Assembly: GCF_037076455.1 (NCBI RefSeq)
Contig: NZ_AP028679.1
Span: 3,859,501-3,923,500, forward strand
Direction of reading: 5' to 3'
DNA: 64,000 nucleotides
DNA from: Desulfoferula mesophila
GTDB lineage: Bacteria; Desulfobacterota; Desulfarculia; Desulfarculales; Desulfarculaceae
Below are positions 55,074-62,257 of this stretch, piece after piece (position 1 is the first letter of the stretch; the number at the start of each line of letters is the position of its first letter). The notes below the pieces were generated by a model. The model was given only the letters and a program-made list of their open reading frames with translations, searched no databases and was not told the origin of the DNA. Both the position numbers and the translations under genes were made by a program.

Positions 55074-56171
55074 TTAGCGCCCCGTCTCCAAAAGCACCCG
55101 CCCCCCCACGGGCATAAGCAGCACCCGGCCGCGCCACTGGGGATGCTTGGCCACGTAGTTATTTATGTCCTGGGCGGGCCAGGCGGCGGGGCCGTCGCCC
55201 AGATCGAGCACTCCCCACTGGGTGGGCACCAGGCGCCGCGCCCCCAGATCGGCGAAGGCTTGGAACAGCTCGGGCACGTCCATGTGGGCGTAGTGCATGA
55301 ACCAGCGCGGCTGGTAGGCCCCGGCCCCCAACAGCGCCAGGTCGATGTCCGGCCAGCGGCGGCCGATCTCCTTGAAGCCCTTGAAGTAGCCGCTGTCCCC
55401 GCCGTAGTAGATTTTCTCCCCGCCCCGCTCCAGCATCCACGAGCCCCACAGGCTCTCGTTGTAGCCCTGGCCCAGGCGGCGGCTCCAGTGCTGGGTGGGC
55501 AGGAAGGTGAAGGTGGCGCCGCCCACCTCCGTGCTCTGCCACCAGTCCAGCTCCCGCACCTGTTTGGCCCCCATCTCCCGGAGCAGCTCCCCCAGGCCCA
55601 GTGGGCACAGGAACAGCGCCTCCCGCCCGGCCAGGGCGGCCACCGAGTCGGAATCCAGGTGGTCGTAGTGGTTGTGGCTGATGAGCACCACCACCCCCCG
55701 GGGCAGGGCCCGGGGCCCGAAGGCCGGGGGCACCAGGCGGCTCACTATGGCCGCCCTTTGGGAGAAAAAGGGATCGGTGATCACCACCTGGCCGCCCCAC
55801 TGCACCACGTAGGTGGCATGGCCCACCCAGGTCAGGCTGGCCGGGGCCGCCGGGTCGCGCAGATAGGCCCCGTCGTTGGCCACGGTGGGGGTGGGAAAGT
55901 CCGCGTCGTTCAGGTCGCCCAGGCTGGAGCGGCTAAGCCACCAGCGAAAGAGGTCCCAGCTGGACTTGTCTTGGGGCAGCCAGGGATTGAAATAGCGGCC
56001 CTCGGCGTCCTGGTGGGGGGCGTGGAGTTTGGCCGGATCGGTGGCGGTCACGGTCTTATGCCAGGCGGCTTCGTCAAAGGGCTTGGGGCTCAGGCACCCC
56101 ACCCCCAACAAGAGCAGGGCCATCGCCAGCCCCGTGCCCAGGCGGCGGCGTATGCGGGCGTAGTTGCACAT
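55074..56171 (-). CDS. Lipoprotein metallo-beta-lactamase, NAPE-PLD-like
   Basis: 365 residues. Lipoprotein signal with LGVGC lipobox (C at about 26). MBL fold: WVGHATYVVQWGGQVVITDP, ISHNHYDHLD, LPTQHWSRR, YYGGDSGYF and the late MDVPELFQAF. This is the pattern of N-acyl-phosphatidylethanolamine phospholipase D and its bacterial relatives, often outer-membrane attached. A phospholipid phosphodiesterase role is plausible but not proven. 51 bases separate it from the small membrane protein gene downstream. Confidence 0.85.
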   Translation of the reverse strand: MCNYARIRRRLGTGLAMALLLLGVGCLSPKPFDEAAWHKTVTATDPAKLHAPHQDAEGRYFNPWLPQDKSSWDLFRWWLSRSSLGDLNDADFPTPTVANDGAYLRDPAAPASLTWVGHATYVVQWGGQVVITDPFFSQRAAIVSRLVPPAFGPRALPRGVVVLISHNHYDHLDSDSVAALAGREALFLCPLGLGELLREMGAKQVRELDWWQSTEVGGATFTFLPTQHWSRRLGQGYNESLWGSWMLERGGEKIYYGGDSGYFKGFKEIGRRWPDIDLALLGAGAYQPRWFMHYAHMDVPELFQAFADLGARRLVPTQWGVLDLGDGPAAWPAQDINNYVAKHPQWRGRVLLMPVGGRVLLETGR

Positions 56172-56220: not shown

Positions 56221-58134
56221 TCAGGCCTTCCAGCGGCCCCGGTCCAGTTCCCGTAGCTTGCCCTCCAACAAGCGGGCCAGGTCTTCCAGGTTGTCCCGCC
56301 CGCCCAAGAGGTTGCCGTGGATCTCCACGTGCAGTTTCACCGCCGGGGCCGCCGCCCCCTCCCGCGAAAACCCCTGGTTAAGCGCCTTGAGCGCCGGCAG
56401 GCTGGCGGCGGTCACCGCCTCCGAGCGCACCACGTACTCGCCCCGCCGGGCGATGAGCGGCACCTCGTCGTGGGCCAGCGAGCTTATCAGCGCCCCGGCG
56501 CGGGCCTTGGGCCAGCCCATCACCCGGCCCCCCTGGTGCATCGTCAGCATCTCCATGCCGCCGCTGCCCTGGGAAAACGCCGCGCCTCCGCCGTCGCTGG
56601 TGGTGATCTTCATCGTCCCGCCCGCGCCTTTCACCTGCTTCATGCTGCCTATCAGGCCCTTGATGGCCTGGGTGCCGTCCTGGGCTCCCTTGGTGAGCCC
56701 GCCCAGCGTCTTGCTCACGAAAGAGTCGAGCGCCTGGTCGAACTGCGCGGCCTCCTGCCCGCCGCTTTGGAAGCTCTCGGCCAGCCCCCATATCTCCTCG
56801 CGGAAGGCCCGGGCCTCCTCGCCGGTGAGCCCCAAACGCTGGGCCAGCTCGTCGATGCGCTTGTCGTAATTCCTGGCCGCCGTGTCGCTCATGGCGAAGC
56901 TGTTGATGGACAGGTTCATGGACTCCACCAGCCCGGTCACCTCGTTCTCCAGGCTGTTGGCCGCCTGGCCCGAGGCCACGAACTCCTGGGACAGCGGGTC
57001 CAGCGAGGCCACCAGGGCGTCCACCTGCTCCTGGGAATAGCCGGCCACGTTCTTCAGGTGCTCCAGGGCCTCGGCCGCCTGTTTGGCCGATTCGCTGAAC
57101 AGGGTGAAGTTGTAGCCGGTACCGGCCGACAGCTCATCCACCCCCGCCCCGCGCAGCTCGGCCACGCTGTTTTTCATGAAGTTGGCGTTGGTTTGCCAGT
57201 TGGCCTTGGCCGTCTCGGGGCTCATGGTGTTTTCGATGCCCAAAAGGTCGTTGATCTGGCTGTGGAACAACGCGCCGACCATCCCCGGCGCGAGCCCTAT
57301 GGCAAACGCGCCCGCCGGGCTGGCCAGGGCCGCCCCCGCGCCGCTCAGCAGCGAGCTGGAGGAACCGGCCCCCTCGGTCGCGGCGGTCACCCCCGCGAAC
57401 TCACCTGCCATATCGACCCCATAGGCAGCAGCCATATCGGCGGCGGACTTGGTAATGGCCTCCATGGCCGCGCCGGAAATTACCTCGGCGCCCCCCCCGA
57501 ACAGCGAGCCAACCCAGGAGGTGATGCCTTCCACCGCCCCCAGGCCCGGCAGGGCCGCGAACTCCCAGGCCTCGGTAAAAGTGGCTCCGTCCTTTATGGC
57601 CTCCAGGAAACCGCCCGCGCCGCCGTCCCAGCCTTCGCCGAATATGGCCGGGATGACGTCGAACAGGCCGAAGCCGTCGCCGGAGAACAGCCCGGTGAAC
57701 CAGTCCGACACCGGGTCGAACACCAGTTTCTTGAACATGTTCTGCACCCCGGTGAGGGCGCGGTCCAGGGGCGCGCCCAAGAGCTTGTCCCACAGGCCCT
57801 CCAGCTTGGTGCCCATGTCGTCCCAGGACTTTTCCCAGATGTCGCCCACCTTGTCCATTTCGCCGTCAAAGGCCGCCGAGACCGTGCCCTTGAGGGCGTT
57901 TTTGGTGGAGTCCTTCACCACCTTTTCCGCGTCGTTCCAGGTTTTGACCACGTCCGTGGCCATGCCGGACATGAACAGGTCGAATTGGCGGCCGGCGGAT
58001 GTTCCGATTGTGTCAAGGGCGCTTTCAAATTGGCCTACCCATTTTTTCAATTCTGAACCGGCGCTAACTAAACTTTGAGGATTAAGCTGCGCATTTAATT
58101 GTAAATTCATTGAAATTGTATTGCTCGGACTCAT
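56221..58134 (-). CDS. Phage tail tape-measure-like protein, orphan
   Basis: 637 residues from ATG 58134 (GGGAGAG upstream; a GTG at 58206 is also open). N-terminal helices with an amphipathic, phage-like pattern, a central Gly/Ala-rich hydrophobic zone (about 240-300, typical of tape-measure membrane segments), further helices, and a C-terminal MHQGGRVMGWPKAR ... RRGEYVVRSEA part that many tail tape-measure proteins share. No other tail, capsid, integrase or lysis gene is nearby. It is either a prophage remnant or a protein reused by the host. Confidence 0.6.
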   Translation of the reverse strand: MSPSNTISMNLQLNAQLNPQSLVSAGSELKKWVGQFESALDTIGTSAGRQFDLFMSGMATDVVKTWNDAEKVVKDSTKNALKGTVSAAFDGEMDKVGDIWEKSWDDMGTKLEGLWDKLLGAPLDRALTGVQNMFKKLVFDPVSDWFTGLFSGDGFGLFDVIPAIFGEGWDGGAGGFLEAIKDGATFTEAWEFAALPGLGAVEGITSWVGSLFGGGAEVISGAAMEAITKSAADMAAAYGVDMAGEFAGVTAATEGAGSSSSLLSGAGAALASPAGAFAIGLAPGMVGALFHSQINDLLGIENTMSPETAKANWQTNANFMKNSVAELRGAGVDELSAGTGYNFTLFSESAKQAAEALEHLKNVAGYSQEQVDALVASLDPLSQEFVASGQAANSLENEVTGLVESMNLSINSFAMSDTAARNYDKRIDELAQRLGLTGEEARAFREEIWGLAESFQSGGQEAAQFDQALDSFVSKTLGGLTKGAQDGTQAIKGLIGSMKQVKGAGGTMKITTSDGGGAAFSQGSGGMEMLTMHQGGRVMGWPKARAGALISSLAHDEVPLIARRGEYVVRSEAVTAASLPALKALNQGFSREGAAAPAVKLHVEIHGNLLGGRDNLEDLARLLEGKLRELDRGRWKA

Positions 58135-58206
58135 GCTGTGCTCTCCCAGCAAGGGTTTCCTGATTTTCTGCACAAGCTCCGGAGCCCTTCCATCACTCCA
58201 ACTCAC

Positions 58207-58296
58207 AAAAATATTTCCTCAACAAATATTTAGTGTTATGCTAATTAGGTACATTGTGCATATTTAATCCAAATTTTTCCAGCACCGGGGGGACGC
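58207..58296. promoter_or_regulatory. AT-rich divergent control region of the paralogue array
   Basis: 90 bases, much richer in A and T than either side, between the divergent tape-measure-like gene and the first array gene. Promoters for both directions are likely here, but I could not choose box pairs. ACCGGGGGGACGC directly before ATG 58297 is the ribosome site. Confidence 0.45.
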
Positions 58297-59073
58297 ATGA
58301 AAGCTATAAATATCATTGCCATAATCGCTATTTCCTTCGTCGCCGGAATGTTCGGCGGGGCCTTTTCAGAGCGTGTTTTCGCCAATCCCAAAGCAGAAGC
58401 GAAAATCCAAGAGCAGATCCTCGCCCGTGGATTTTTTTTGGTTGATGAAAATAACAGGCCTCGAGCGGGTATGTCTTTTGATAAGGGCGGCAATCCTGTC
58501 GTGTACGTACGAGACCAATCTGGAAACATTCGGGGCTACCTGGTTGATTTACAAGGCGGCCCCATGCTGGCGCTTACAGACGAGAAGGGACGGGATTCAG
58601 TTGTCATGGGGGCGGGCGATGACGGTAAGTCAACAATCGGAATGATGGCGGCCAACAACAAGCCACGTGTAGCAATCAACTACACTCCCGGCCGTGGTCC
58701 GGGCCTAGCACTTTTTGACGACGACAACGTGGGCAAGGCAGGGCTGGCTATCATCCACGGAAAGCCGGTTATCGGACTCAACAAGGCAGATGGCACTCCA
58801 GCTATCGCAATGTCCTACGACCCAAAAAGGGAAGCGGCTCTGCTCGGCTTCTTGAACAGCCGCAACGAGGCCAAGGCCGGTTTTGGCCTCATGAACGACA
58901 AGCCCCTGCTTTTCGCCTACCGCCCCGACGACACCGGCCTGCTGTTCAACATCCAGCGCGACGGCCGCCCGGCCCTGGGCCTGCTCACCGAGGGCCGCCC
59001 CGAGTGGTCCGCCACCGGCACCGTGCCCCAAATGCCCGCCCTAGACGGCATCCTGGATCAGGTCTTGCGCTAG
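58297..59073 (+). CDS. Tandem paralogue 1: membrane-anchored repeat protein
   Basis: 258 residues. N-terminal hydrophobic segment (INIIAIIAISFVAGMFGGAF, 4-23) as anchor or uncleaved signal, then FSERVFANPKAEAKIQEQIL, then repeated beta units of about 20-24 residues of the form 'RAG.SF..GG.PVVYV.D..G..RGY' through to residue about 190, and a constant C-terminal part ending LDGILDQVLR. Similar 'Gly-Lys-x-Arg-Ala' beta repeats occur in many uncharacterised bacterial proteins and may form a solenoid. First of four adjacent genes with the same length and layout. Function unknown. Confidence 0.8.
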   Translation: MKAINIIAIIAISFVAGMFGGAFSERVFANPKAEAKIQEQILARGFFLVDENNRPRAGMSFDKGGNPVVYVRDQSGNIRGYLVDLQGGPMLALTDEKGRDSVVMGAGDDGKSTIGMMAANNKPRVAINYTPGRGPGLALFDDDNVGKAGLAIIHGKPVIGLNKADGTPAIAMSYDPKREAALLGFLNSRNEAKAGFGLMNDKPLLFAYRPDDTGLLFNIQRDGRPALGLLTEGRPEWSATGTVPQMPALDGILDQVLR

Positions 59074-59098
59074 CTCAATTGACATACGGGGGGAAGTC
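59074..59098 (+). repeat. Conserved spacer 1 of the array
   Basis: 25 bases, CTCAATTGACATACGGGGGG then AAGTC. Identical to spacer 3 and nearly identical to spacer 2; carries the ribosome site GGGGGGA. Confidence 0.9.
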
Positions 59099-59875
59099 AT
59101 GAAAGCCATCCACATCGTCGCCATAATCGCCATTTCCTTCGTCACCGGGATGTTTGGCGGGACTTTCTCGGAGAGGGTTTTCGCCAATCCCAAAGCAGAA
59201 ACGAAAATCCACGACCATATCCTCGCCCGTGCTTTTAATCTGGTTGATGAAAAAAGCAAAATTAGAGCAAGCATAGCTTTTTCTGGTGATGGCCAACCTA
59301 TGTTGTGCGTCGGAGACGAAACCGGGAAGCCTAGGGGCTTCCTATCTTGTGCCGTCGATGGGCCAATATTTGCCCTCGTGGACAAGGCGGGCGAGTCAAA
59401 CGTGTTTTTGAAGGCCAACGACGATGGCAGTTCGATGATGGCCCTGATGAAAGACGCGAACCACGCGCGCCTAATGATGAGGTACAGCCCCGGCCGGGGT
59501 CCGGGAATGGTTCTTTTTGATGACGACAACGTAGGTAAGGCAGCAGTGGCCATAATAGAAGGTCAGCCGACCTTCGCCGTGAACCAACCGAACGGCAAAC
59601 CGGCAATTACCATGTCTTACGACCCCAAGAGAAAAGCGTCCCTGCTGGGCTTCCTAAACAGCCGCAACGAGGCCAAGGCCGGTTTCGGCCTCATGAACGA
59701 CAAACCCCTGCTCTTCGCCTACCGCCCCGACGACACTGGCCTGCTGTTCAACATCCAGCGCGACGGCCGCCCGGCCCTGGGCCTGCTCACCGAGGGCCGC
59801 CCCGAGTGGTCCGCCACAGGCACCGTGCCCCAAATGCCCGCCCTGGACGGCATCCTGGATCAAGTCTTGCGCTAG
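59099..59875 (+). CDS. Tandem paralogue 2: membrane-anchored repeat protein
   Basis: 258 residues. The first 45 residues match paralogue 1 closely, as do the last 75 (from LLGFLNSRNEAKAGFGLMND). Its centre is the most different of the four (RASIAFSGDGQPMLCVGDET and later NVFLKANDDGSSMMALMKDA). PGRGPG and DDDNVGKA are kept. The centre is less GC-rich than the constant ends. Confidence 0.8.
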   Translation: MKAIHIVAIIAISFVTGMFGGTFSERVFANPKAETKIHDHILARAFNLVDEKSKIRASIAFSGDGQPMLCVGDETGKPRGFLSCAVDGPIFALVDKAGESNVFLKANDDGSSMMALMKDANHARLMMRYSPGRGPGMVLFDDDNVGKAAVAIIEGQPTFAVNQPNGKPAITMSYDPKRKASLLGFLNSRNEAKAGFGLMNDKPLLFAYRPDDTGLLFNIQRDGRPALGLLTEGRPEWSATGTVPQMPALDGILDQVLR

Positions 59876-59899
59876 CTCAATCGACATACGGGGGGAGCC
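59876..59899 (+). repeat. Conserved spacer 2 of the array
   Basis: 24 bases with CTCAATCGACATACGGGGGG then AGCC. One change and one base fewer than spacers 1 and 3. Confidence 0.9.
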
Positions 59900-60673
59900 A
59901 TGAAAGCTCATCACATCGTCGCCATAATCGCCATTTCCTTCATCGCCGGGATGTTCGGCGGGACCTTTTCGGAACGTGTTTTCGCCAATCCCAAAGCAGA
60001 AGCGAAAATCCAAGAGCAGGTAATCGCCCGTGGATTTTTTTTGGTTGATGAAAATGACAGACCCCGCGCAGGCATGTCCTTTGACCCTGCTGGTCAGCCC
60101 GTAATCTATGTAAAAGATAACGTGGGGAAAGTTCGTGGTTACTTGGGGTGCGAGCAAAGGGGACCCATGCTGGCGCTTAACGACGAAAACGAGAAAAAAT
60201 CTGTACTTCTTAGCGCGTTAAACGGTGGCAAGTCGATGATAGGGCTGATGGGTAAAGAAGAACAAGCACGTATAACAATGACTTATGATCCAGAGCAGAG
60301 TACGGCTTTAATTCTAAGCGACGACGAAAATATAGCAAAGGCACTCGTGTCAGTTACCAACGGCAAACCGAGTGTTTTTCTCACGCAGGGGGACAAAAAA
60401 CCTGCCGTGGCTATGCTCTGGGGGTCTAACCGGGGAGCCCTGCTGGGGTTCTGGAACAGCCACAACGAAGGCAAGGTGGCTCTGGGCTTGAAAGACGACA
60501 AACCGATTCTCTTCGCCTACCGCCCCGACGACACCGGTCTACTGTTCAACATCCAGCGTGACGGCCGCCCGGCCCTGGGCCTGCTCACCGAGGGCCGCCC
60601 CGAGTGGTCCGCCACCGGCACCGTGCCCCAAATGCCCACCCTGGACGGCATCCTGGATCAGGTCTTGCGCTAG
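59900..60673 (+). CDS. Tandem paralogue 3: membrane-anchored repeat protein
   Basis: 257 residues, same plan. Its centre (MSFDPAGQPVIYVKDNVGKV, RITMTYDPEQSTALILSDDE) is nearest to paralogue 4. It is the only copy with changes in the start of the constant end (FWNSHNEGKVALGLKDDKP), so exchange between copies is patchy. Confidence 0.8.
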   Translation: MKAHHIVAIIAISFIAGMFGGTFSERVFANPKAEAKIQEQVIARGFFLVDENDRPRAGMSFDPAGQPVIYVKDNVGKVRGYLGCEQRGPMLALNDENEKKSVLLSALNGGKSMIGLMGKEEQARITMTYDPEQSTALILSDDENIAKALVSVTNGKPSVFLTQGDKKPAVAMLWGSNRGALLGFWNSHNEGKVALGLKDDKPILFAYRPDDTGLLFNIQRDGRPALGLLTEGRPEWSATGTVPQMPTLDGILDQVLR

Positions 60674-60698
60674 CTCAATTGACATACGGGGGGAAGTC
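60674..60698 (+). repeat. Conserved spacer 3 of the array
   Basis: 25 bases identical to spacer 1. Confidence 0.9.
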
Positions 60699-61472
60699 AT
60701 GAAAGCCATCCACATCGTCGCCATAATCGCTATTTCCTTCATCGCCGGCATGTTCGGCGGGACCTTTTCGGAACGTGTTTTCGCCAATCCCAAAGCAGAA
60801 GCGAAAATCCACGAGCAGATAATCGCCCGTGGATTTTTTTTGGTTGATGAAAATAAAAAAACCCGTGCAGGCATGTCCTTTGACCCTACTGGTCAGCCCG
60901 TAATTTACGTAAAAGACAAAAATGGAGCGGTTAGGGCCTACATGGCTTGCGAGAAAGGTGGGCCGCTGGTCGCCCTGAATAACAGCAGGGAAGAGATGTC
61001 CGCGTACATGGAGGCAGATGGCGATGGTAGCTGCTCAATGGGACTTATGGGAGCAAAAGAAAAAGCGCGGCTAACGATAGTCTACAAGCCAAATAAGGGG
61101 CCTATGCTGGGGATGTTCGACGAAAACAACATATCCAAAGCGTTTATGATGGTTGCTCGCGGTAAACCGAGCATATCCCTTCTCCAAGACGACAAGAAGC
61201 CGGCAATAACTATGCTTTGGGGGCCTAACCGGGGTGCTTTGCTGGGGTTCTGGAACAGCCGCAACGAGGCCAAGGCGGGTTTCGGCCTCATGAACGACAA
61301 GCCCCTACTTTTTGCCTACCGCCCCGACGACACCGGCCTGCTGTTCAACATCCAGCGCGACGGCCGCCCGGCCCTGGGCCTGCTCACCGAGGGCCGCCCC
61401 GAGTGGTCCGCCACCGGCACCGTGCCTCAGATGCCCGCCCTGGACGGCATCCTGGATCAGGTCTTGCGCTAG
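60699..61472 (+). CDS. Tandem paralogue 4: membrane-anchored repeat protein
   Basis: 257 residues from ATG 60699. N-terminal 60 residues nearly equal to paralogue 3, centre distinct (YMACEKGGPLVALNNSREEM, KPNKGPMLGMFDENNISKAF), C-terminal 75 residues equal to paralogues 1 and 2. A frame open further upstream overlaps paralogue 3 and is not coding. Its last four bases overlap the opposing Cys-rich gene. No terminator seen between them. Confidence 0.8.
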   Translation: MKAIHIVAIIAISFIAGMFGGTFSERVFANPKAEAKIHEQIIARGFFLVDENKKTRAGMSFDPTGQPVIYVKDKNGAVRAYMACEKGGPLVALNNSREEMSAYMEADGDGSCSMGLMGAKEKARLTIVYKPNKGPMLGMFDENNISKAFMMVARGKPSISLLQDDKKPAITMLWGPNRGALLGFWNSRNEAKAGFGLMNDKPLLFAYRPDDTGLLFNIQRDGRPALGLLTEGRPEWSATGTVPQMPALDGILDQVLR

Positions 61473-62257
61473 AGCAGGGACCGCCAGCGGGCCAGCTCCG
61501 CCGGGCGCGCCCGGCGGCGGCCGCTGAGCCGGTGCCAGGCCTTGGCCTCCCACTCGCCGCACAGGGCGTGCAGGGGCTCGCCCTGCTCGTGGGGCGGGTT
61601 GGGGCCCAGGCGCTGGGCCAGGGCCTCGGCCTCCCCGGCCAGGCGTTGGTGCAGATCGGGCCAAGCCAGGGCCGCCGCGCCCCAGGCCTCCAGCCGCCGG
61701 GCCAACAGCCAGCCCCAGGCGGGCGGCGCGTCCGTCAGCCAACCCCAGGCGGCCAACTCCTCCCGCGAGCCCGGGCCCAGCCCCGCCGCCGTGGTGGCCA
61801 CCTCCGGGCCGAAGGCCAACAGGCGCATCACCGGGTTTCGGCGCGGGCTGCCGAAGGCCAGGCTCTCCAGCCCCGCGCACAGCTCCAGCAGGGCCTCGCG
61901 CGCCGGTTGCTCCAGGGCGGCGAAGGCCCGGGCCGGGGGGCAGCTCTCCCGGGCGCACTTTTCCTGGAACCCGGTGGGCCCTCGCAGGTCGCGGCCCTGG
62001 TTGTGGGCCGGGTGCAACAGGCAGCCCGCCACCCGCCCCCGTTGGTCCAGATAGCCCAGGCCGGGGCACCAGTAGCCGGTGATGGGCTTGGTGGGCGGCC
62101 CCTCTTCGCGCATCCGGCGGGTGTTGTCGGCCAAGAGGCGGCGCAGGCTGCCCAGGTGGTCGGCGTGGTCGTAGCCCGCCGGGCGGATGGGCGGGCAGCA
62201 GGCCACGCAGCTAAGCCCCCGCCCCGGCGAGCACAACAGCAGACCGCTGTGCTTCAC
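61469..62257 (-). CDS. Cys-rich protein, YkgJ-like N-terminus
   Basis: 262 residues. N-terminal half has nine cysteines in a pattern reminiscent of YkgJ-type iron/zinc-binding proteins (LLLCSPGRGLSCVACCPP; then YWCPGLGYLDQRGRVAGCLL and EKCARESCPP). C-terminal half is Ala/Leu/Arg-rich and helical. The ATG at 62257 overlaps the stop of the ATP-grasp gene (ATGA), so it is the third gene of a coupled operon. Function unknown. Confidence 0.7.
   Translation of the reverse strand: MKHSGLLLCSPGRGLSCVACCPPIRPAGYDHADHLGSLRRLLADNTRRMREEGPPTKPITGYWCPGLGYLDQRGRVAGCLLHPAHNQGRDLRGPTGFQEKCARESCPPARAFAALEQPAREALLELCAGLESLAFGSPRRNPVMRLLAFGPEVATTAAGLGPGSREELAAWGWLTDAPPAWGWLLARRLEAWGAAALAWPDLHQRLAGEAEALAQRLGPNPPHEQGEPLHALCGEWEAKAWHRLSGRRRARPAELARWRSLL

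What the first reader, a model, noticed from the sequence alone, without database searches (positions are those of the whole stretch)
58297..61472. Four tandem paralogues with constant ends, constant 24-25 base spacers and variable centres
Four genes of 257-258 residues follow each other in one direction. The first about 50 residues, the last about 75 residues and the intergenic spacers are almost identical in DNA, while the central about 130 residues differ and are less GC-rich. All copies keep the same length. The pattern looks like a cassette array: constant anchor, constant C-terminal module, diversified beta-repeat middle. Homogenisation of the ends by gene conversion, or selection for diverse middles (binding partners, surface variation), would both give it. 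The centre has a beta unit of about 22 residues built on G-x-P-x-x-x-V-x-D, so a solenoid is likely. I know no described family for the full architecture.
Basis: partly seen in the sequence, partly recalled or inferred. Interest (0 to 1): 0.75.

Follow-up and report, generated by a model that had tools for sequence, protein, structure and literature searches.

The report
Hairpin-protein array beside orphan phage gene
Four side-by-side genes for membrane-anchored, sheet-shaped proteins share nearly identical ends because recombination keeps copying the ends between neighbours, while their old, different middles persist; the array sits head-to-head with a lone gene related to phage tail-length proteins, a pairing seen only in this bacterial family and with no known function.

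Summary
Four intact tandem genes (58297-61472) have near-identical ends and 24-25 bp spacers around a divergent centre. Silent sites show this is recombination, not protein constraint: among amino-acid-conserved codons, 29/35 differ silently in the centre, 15/59 in the C-terminus and 8/30 in the N-terminus.

Centres have orthologues in other species while C-terminal ends cluster within each genome, independently in several congeners. This is concerted evolution of the ends with old, retained centres. Centre dN/dS is about 0.2-0.4, so there is no sign of positive selection.

The proteins have a signal/anchor helix and nine 22-residue beta-hairpins, predicted as an OspA/MORN-like single-layer sheet rather than a solenoid.

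The array is divergent from an orphan phage tape-measure-like gene (56221-58134), found only in Desulfarculaceae. An AT-rich variable core spans both 5' ends with sharp GC3 steps. Relatives carry units of hairpin gene plus truncated tape-measure 5' end, at either of two chromosomal sites.

Tandem paralogues with conserved ends and a variable centre are known from tipC immunity arrays (PMC9484751). The hairpin/tape-measure pairing appears undescribed; its function is inferred only.

The parts
58297..59073 (+). hairpin-repeat membrane-anchored protein g1 (258 aa)
   Evidence: TM/signal helix 2-18, 22-residue hairpins; centre orthologous to the frameshifted second copy of congener G005
59099..59875 (+). 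hairpin protein g2 (258 aa)
   Evidence: centre 96-140 is 79% DNA-identical to G005 copy 1, clade support 0.95
59900..60673 (+). hairpin protein g3 (257 aa)
   Evidence: still diverged at codons 186-210, so homogenisation is incomplete
60699..61472 (+). hairpin protein g4 (257 aa); the 304-aa ORF in the list starts upstream at a spurious GTG
   Evidence: ATG at 60699
59074..59098 (.). constant spacer 1, CTCAATTGACATACGGGGGGAAGTC, with ribosome-binding-site-like GGGGGGAA
59876..59899 (.). constant spacer 2
60674..60698 (.). constant spacer 3, identical to spacer 1
58135..58296 (.). divergent intergenic region between the tape-measure-like gene (taking its ATG at 58134) and g1; AT-rich (GC about 0.41); presumed promoter region of both directions
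   Evidence: terminator-like sites in the array region are no more than expected by chance
56221..58134 (-). orphan phage tape-measure-like gene (637 aa from the ATG conserved in relatives; GTG at 58206 is also possible)
   Evidence: PHROG tape-measure hits 1e-5; homologous to residues 676-1195 of a 1270-aa prophage tape-measure protein, E 3e-44; C-terminal motif in a phage tail locus
57985..58134 (-). first 50 codons of the tape-measure-like gene: AT-rich variable core (GC3 0.32-0.44 against about 0.9 in the rest)
58447..58851 (+). variable, low-GC3 centre of g1 (codons 51-185); the equivalent stretch is present in g2-g4
55074..56171 (-). metallo-beta-lactamase-fold protein flanking site A (not part of the module)
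61469..62257 (-). uncharacterised 262-aa gene flanking site A on the other side; its stop overlaps the stop of g4

Best explanation
The four genes are a tandem array of inner-membrane-anchored or exported proteins (N-terminal signal/anchor helix followed by an OspA/MORN-like single-layer sheet of nine 22-residue beta-hairpins). The array evolves by birth-and-death plus homologous recombination (gene conversion and unequal crossing-over) through constant end blocks. [Shown] The C-terminal block, together with the spacer and, in this genome, the next N-terminus, is homogenised within each genome, while the centres are old paralogues that persist across species. [Shown] The array is one half of a two-gene module whose other half is a divergent orphan gene related to the C-terminal part of a siphophage tape-measure protein (TMP). 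An AT-rich variable core covers the first ~50 TMP codons, the divergent promoter region and the hairpin N-terminus/centre, flanked by GC-rich conserved arms; in congeners G006 and G001 the duplicated unit is this whole core plus arms. [Inferred, moderate] The constant blocks act as homology arms that let units be gained, lost and swapped while diverse centres are kept as a repertoire. [Inferred, weak] The repertoire serves recognition of variable partners at the cell envelope. My first guess is phage TMPs arriving during genome injection, i.e. a superinfection-exclusion-type function; the alternative is an immunity-like array matched to the TMP-like protein. The confidence given is for the evolutionary mechanism and module; the functional step alone is about 0.15-0.2.
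For: Silent-site test: conserved-aa codons differing silently, centre against C-terminus: own 29/35 vs 15/59 (p=5e-8), G006 25/31 vs 11/62 (p=8e-9), G001 30/53 vs 8/63 (p=5e-7), G004 43/72 vs 10/59 (p=9e-7). Segment trees conflict: centre groups g2+G005_1 (0.95) and g1+G005_2 (0.88); the C-terminal block groups own (0.93), G006 (0.97) and G001 (0.94) by genome. Silent-fragment permutation: 20 of 2000 reach the observed value. GC3 steps at TMP codon ~50 (own, G001, G004, G005, G006) and hairpin codon ~175-185 (these and G002), also in the hairpin gene of G014 and the lone site-A hairpin gene of G006. TMP-like gene beside a hairpin gene in own, G001, G002, G004, G005, G006, G009, G010, G015. G006 has four units, three with TMP truncated at the same junction, implying one founding duplication then amplification. 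Fold. Literature basis for tape-measure recognition at the membrane: SNIPE (PMC13190303), Ltp (PMC3952083, abstract), HK97 gp15 (cited in PMC13190303).
Against: Function rests only on gene neighbourhood and analogy. No binding, toxin or defence domain was found. Class-mates carry a single-copy hairpin protein without the TMP-like gene, beside ordinary metabolic genes, so the ancestral role of the hairpin protein is not tied to tape-measure proteins. The TMP-like gene in G016 has no detectable hairpin neighbour. Co-segregation of TMP N-termini with hairpin variants is only weak (Mantel r 0.40, p 0.009, confounded by species). Low GC3 also occurs in apparently single-copy relatives, so it is not a by-product of conversion. 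The fold model is moderate (mean pLDDT 66; about 82-92 over residues 51-150, low in the C-terminal third). The Sawyer-type maximum-fragment statistic was not significant (133 of 2000). Between genomes the C-terminus also changes more slowly at silent sites than the centre (p 0.001-0.003), so part of the contrast is a rate effect.
Confidence: 0.72

Rival explanations
1. Ordinary tandem gene family: ends conserved by purifying selection on the anchor and C-terminal module, centres drifting, no recombination.
For: dN/dS below 1 throughout; the C-terminal block is also conserved between species at protein level.
Against: Synonymous sites are homogenised in the ends; C-terminal trees cluster by genome while centre trees do not; between-genome C-terminal divergence exceeds within-genome divergence.
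Confidence: 0.07
2. Polymorphic effector/immunity locus: the TMP-like protein is an exported or injected effector with a variable N-terminus, and the hairpin genes are a string of membrane-anchored immunity proteins, as with tipC beside telC.
For: Tandem array with conserved 5' and 3' blocks and variable centre next to a partner gene with a variable terminus; duplicated units carry a truncated partner plus an intact hairpin gene; tipC precedent, a membrane-bound immunity protein (PMC9484751).
Against: No toxin domain in the TMP-like protein; the variable part is only ~45 aa; partner genes are divergent, not an operon; co-segregation is weak.
Confidence: 0.2
3. Antigenic/phase variation: silent cassettes recombine into one expressed copy to vary a surface protein.
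For: Constant ends flanking a variable centre, as in known pseudogene-donor systems (general knowledge); G006 has one full and three truncated TMP copies.
Against: All four hairpin genes here are intact with their own ribosome-binding-like spacers; no truncated donors in this genome (one search finds only these four); centres are old and shared between species rather than freshly shuffled.
Confidence: 0.12
4. Horizontal import: the AT-rich core was repeatedly acquired from AT-rich donors or phages by recombination in the GC-rich arms.
For: Sharp GC3 steps on both sides in every congener examined; module present at alternative sites and absent from site A of G001 and from site B of own, G004 and G005; G009 shows a GC3-high N-terminus and C-terminus with a low centre.
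Against: No relatives of the hairpin in IMG/VR, INPHARED or, beyond weak 24% hits, plasmids; centres track congeners, not unrelated taxa.
Confidence: 0.25

Closest known systems
tipC immunity-gene arrays beside telC (Streptococcus), and esaG arrays (S. aureus); PMC9484751
   Same: Tandem non-identical paralogues; tipC has conserved blocks at the 5' and 3' ends with a variable centre; evolve by recombination through the blocks; membrane-bound.
   Different: Unrelated proteins; Gram-positive type VII secretion context; no tape-measure partner; no divergent promoter or AT-rich core reported in what I read.
S. aureus lpl tandem lipoprotein cluster (Tsuru and Kobayashi 2008, known here only through PMC9484751)
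   Same: Tandem exported paralogues whose copy number changes by recombination in a conserved block.
   Different: There the conserved block (~130 nt) is in the gene centre; here it is the gene ends plus spacer.
OspA single-layer beta-sheet / MORN-repeat fold
   Same: Repeating ~22-23-residue beta-hairpins; best PDB matches by fold (E 8.5e-8) and by profile (OspA mutant, E 5e-5).
   Different: 10-15% identity, fold analogy only; OspA is a spirochaete lipoprotein with globular caps.
Siphophage tail tape-measure protein
   Same: The partner gene matches the C-terminal half of a prophage tape-measure protein (E 3e-44) and shares a C-terminal motif with a phage tail tape-measure ORF.
   Different: Short, standalone, with no other tail genes beside it; conserved at chromosomal sites in one bacterial family.
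Tape-measure-directed exclusion (SNIPE, Ltp, HK97 gp15)
   Same: Membrane-bound or surface-exposed proteins that act on, or are placed with, phage tape-measure proteins during injection (PMC13190303, PMC3952083).
   Different: No sequence relation tested or known; functional parallel only.

Membership tests
Recombining tandem paralogue array with homology blocks (tipC/esaG/lpl kind) | Tandem non-identical paralogues sharing blocks of high DNA identity | tested here: met
Recombining tandem paralogue array with homology blocks (tipC/esaG/lpl kind) | Recombination between paralogues through the blocks | tested here: met
   silent-site test and segment-tree conflict
Recombining tandem paralogue array with homology blocks (tipC/esaG/lpl kind) | Copy-number variation between related genomes | tested here: met
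   own 4; G004 2; G005 2 (one frameshifted); G002 at least 1 (contig end); G001 2; G006 4 at site B plus 1 at site A
Polymorphic toxin-immunity locus | Adjacent toxin or effector with a recognisable toxin domain | tested here: not met
   no toxin domain in the TMP-like protein by Pfam, NCBIfam, PHROGs or PADLOC
OspA/MORN-type single-layer beta-sheet | Regular hairpin repeat of about 22-23 residues forming an open single-layer sheet | tested here: inconclusive
   22-residue period and confident strands at 51-150; Foldseek OspA probability 1.0 but TM 0.48
MORN repeat family (sequence) | Match to the Pfam MORN model | tested here: not met
   no MORN hit at E up to 1 or in the 23 relatives at E up to 0.1
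Phage tape-measure protein (partner gene) | Sequence homology to tape-measure proteins | tested here: met
Phage tape-measure protein (partner gene) | Located in a tail gene cluster | tested here: not met
   flanked by chromosomal genes and the hairpin array only; whether it sets any tail length is not testable here
Superinfection exclusion / tape-measure-directed defence | Blocks phage genome entry through contact with the tape-measure protein | not testable with these tools
   needs experiment
Gene-conversion antigenic variation (one expressed copy plus silent donors) | Single expression site with truncated donor copies | tested here: not met
   four intact genes and no further copies in this genome

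The most novel reading that the evidence does not exclude
A family-specific two-component envelope system: a domesticated phage tape-measure fragment and a recombining repertoire of membrane-anchored hairpin-sheet proteins, evolving as swappable AT-rich cassettes between constant arms, that recognises tape-measure proteins of incoming phages (or the orphan one) and so excludes phages, with the variable centres setting specificity.
Probability: 0.15. Interest if true: 0.85.

Novelty: new variant of a known kind. Interest (0 to 1): 0.55.

Why it matters
It is a clean case of concerted evolution limited to gene ends in bacteria, seen independently in several congeners, with a sharp GC3 boundary that coincides with the homogenised C-terminal block; that makes it useful for testing whether recombination keeps GC high. 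If the link with the orphan tape-measure gene is functional, it would point to an undescribed envelope system in Desulfarculaceae and possibly a new form of diversified phage exclusion.

Tried and rejected
Beta-solenoid: the model and its Foldseek matches favour an open hairpin sheet. Sep15/SelM Pfam hint: far below cut-off. Positive selection in centres: dN/dS about 0.2-0.4 overall where dS is measurable, otherwise saturated. GC-biased conversion as the sole cause of the GC3 step: rejected, because apparently single-copy relatives show the same step; low GC3 as a property of the fold: not supported by one GC-rich class-mate with GC3 0.88-1.0. Phage or plasmid origin of the hairpin genes: no close relatives in IMG/VR, INPHARED or PLSDB. 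Prophage remnant: only the tape-measure-like gene is phage-like in this neighbourhood. Known defence system: none in PADLOC (weak ZorA hit E 0.017 to the tape-measure coil, ignored). Variability confined to loops: not so, strands vary nearly as much. Strict TMP/hairpin cassette co-segregation: only suggestive. A structure job for the tape-measure-like protein did not finish.
Full report
Observation. The four genes lie at 58297-59073, 59099-59875, 59900-60673 and 60699-61472 on the + strand, all intact, with 25/24/25-bp spacers. The genome is a single 4.48-Mb contig and these are its only four copies. Codon-wise comparison gives DNA identity 0.95-0.98 over codons 211-258, 0.83-0.94 over codons 1-32 and 0.51-0.62 over codons 51-185. 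Centre dS is 1.5 or more, or saturated, while C-terminal dS is 0.08-0.17; centre dN/dS is about 0.2-0.4 where measurable. So the centres are old and under net purifying constraint, and the ends have been homogenised.

Is it more than protein constraint? Restricting to codons whose amino acid is the same in all copies, silent differences are found in 29/35 centre codons, 15/59 C-terminal and 8/30 N-terminal codons (p=5e-8 and 6e-6). The same centre/C-terminus contrast holds inside G006, G001 and G004. Between genomes (own_g1 against G004_1, own_g2 against G005_1) the contrast is weaker but present (p about 0.001-0.003), so slower silent change in the GC-rich block contributes as well. A Sawyer-type silent-fragment statistic is reached by 20 of 2000 permutations, although the longest-run form is not significant (133 of 2000).

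Trees. With congener copies, the centre tree joins g2 with G005_1 (0.95), g1 with G005_2 (0.88) and G006_a with G001_b (0.90), while the C-terminal tree joins all own copies (0.93), all G006 copies (0.97) and both G001 copies (0.94). Sliding windows also show mosaic partners within the centre: g4 matches G004_2 at 0.82 over codons 151-170, but g3 at codons 166-185. This is concerted evolution of the ends with retained, partly shuffled old centres.

Protein. Each protein has one hydrophobic helix at residues ~2-21, then 18 strands in nine hairpins with 22-residue period, then a short C-terminal helix (mean pLDDT 66, 82-92 over residues 51-150). Foldseek's best PDB matches are OspA variants (E 8.5e-8), with Rhs shells and MORN proteins further down; giant-virus MORN proteins are frequent among the viral matches. 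The profile search independently finds an OspA mutant (E 5e-5). This is a fold analogy, not family membership: no Pfam, NCBIfam, PHROG or PADLOC family matches.

Neighbourhood. Upstream and divergent lies a 637-aa gene (56221-58134, -). It matches tape-measure PHROGs (1e-5) and residues 676-1195 of a 1270-aa tape-measure protein in a prophage of G005, which has portal, head and tail genes beside it (E 3e-44). Its C-terminal motif occurs in a phage tail locus in IMG/VR. No other tail gene is adjacent. The TMP-like gene is found in 15 of 60 relatives, all in the same family, and in a handful of 198 genomes drawn from the phylum, again only this family. It lies beside hairpin genes in own, G001, G002, G004, G005, G006, G009, G010 and G015; in G016 no hairpin neighbour was found, and in G007, G018 and G019 contig ends prevent judgement. 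The hairpin family is wider: class-mates have one ~200-aa copy beside nrdD, dxs and prenyl-synthesis genes, without the tape-measure gene.

Units and sites. In G006 four hairpin genes each have a divergent tape-measure 5' end, but only one is full length; the three truncated ones share the same junction and a terminator-like inverted repeat, implying one founding duplication followed by amplification. G001 has two units with a different truncation, an independent duplication. In both, tape-measure codons ~46 onwards form a second constant arm (98% DNA identity at codons 46-75 in G001 against about 45% over the first 30). The module sits either between the metallo-hydrolase and the 262-aa gene (site A) or between recR/MBL and DedA (site B); site A is empty in G001 and site B is empty in own, G004 and G005.

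Composition. GC3 is about 0.9 in flanking genes, in the tape-measure body and in hairpin C-termini, but 0.3-0.5 in tape-measure codons 1-50 and mostly 0.3-0.7 in hairpin codons 1-175, across the congeners, including hairpin genes outside such arrays. A GC-rich class-mate hairpin gene has GC3 0.88-1.0, so low GC3 is not inherent to the fold. The variable core is thus a discrete AT-rich island across both 5' ends, either imported or left outside recombination; I cannot decide which.

Mechanism and function. Shown: homogenised ends, old centres, unit duplication, alternative sites, family-specific pairing. Inferred: the constant blocks serve as homology arms maintaining a repertoire. Function is a guess: the pairing with a tape-measure-like gene and the membrane anchor suggest phage exclusion through tape-measure recognition (compare SNIPE, PMC13190303; Ltp, PMC3952083) or an immunity-like repertoire (compare tipC, PMC9484751). 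Co-segregation of tape-measure N-termini and hairpin variants is weak (r 0.40, p 0.009, confounded by species).

Novelty. Conserved-ends/variable-centre tandem arrays are known; the protein family, the tape-measure pairing and the two-sided AT-rich core appear undescribed in what I searched.

Noticed in passing
56221-58134 (-): Standalone phage tape-measure-like gene conserved across Desulfarculaceae with no neighbouring tail genes: an apparently domesticated tape-measure fragment.
   Followed up: partly
L063:1516-16106 (congener G005): A prophage with portal, head protease and a 1270-aa tape-measure protein that is the closest phage relative found of the orphan gene.
   Followed up: partly
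L026:5290-12261 (congener G006): Four hairpin genes alternate with divergent tape-measure 5' ends; three truncated copies share one junction and a terminator-like inverted repeat.
   Followed up: partly
L025 about 5218 (congener G005): The second hairpin copy is frameshifted in a poly-A run (MAG; assembly error possible).
   Followed up: no
L034:5496-6576 (G015): Several short hairpin-family ORF pieces after the intact gene look like decayed array copies.
   Followed up: no
   Followed up: partly
61469-61472: The stop codons of g4 and of the convergent 262-aa gene overlap; the same tight tail-to-tail junction is kept in G004 and G005.
   Followed up: no
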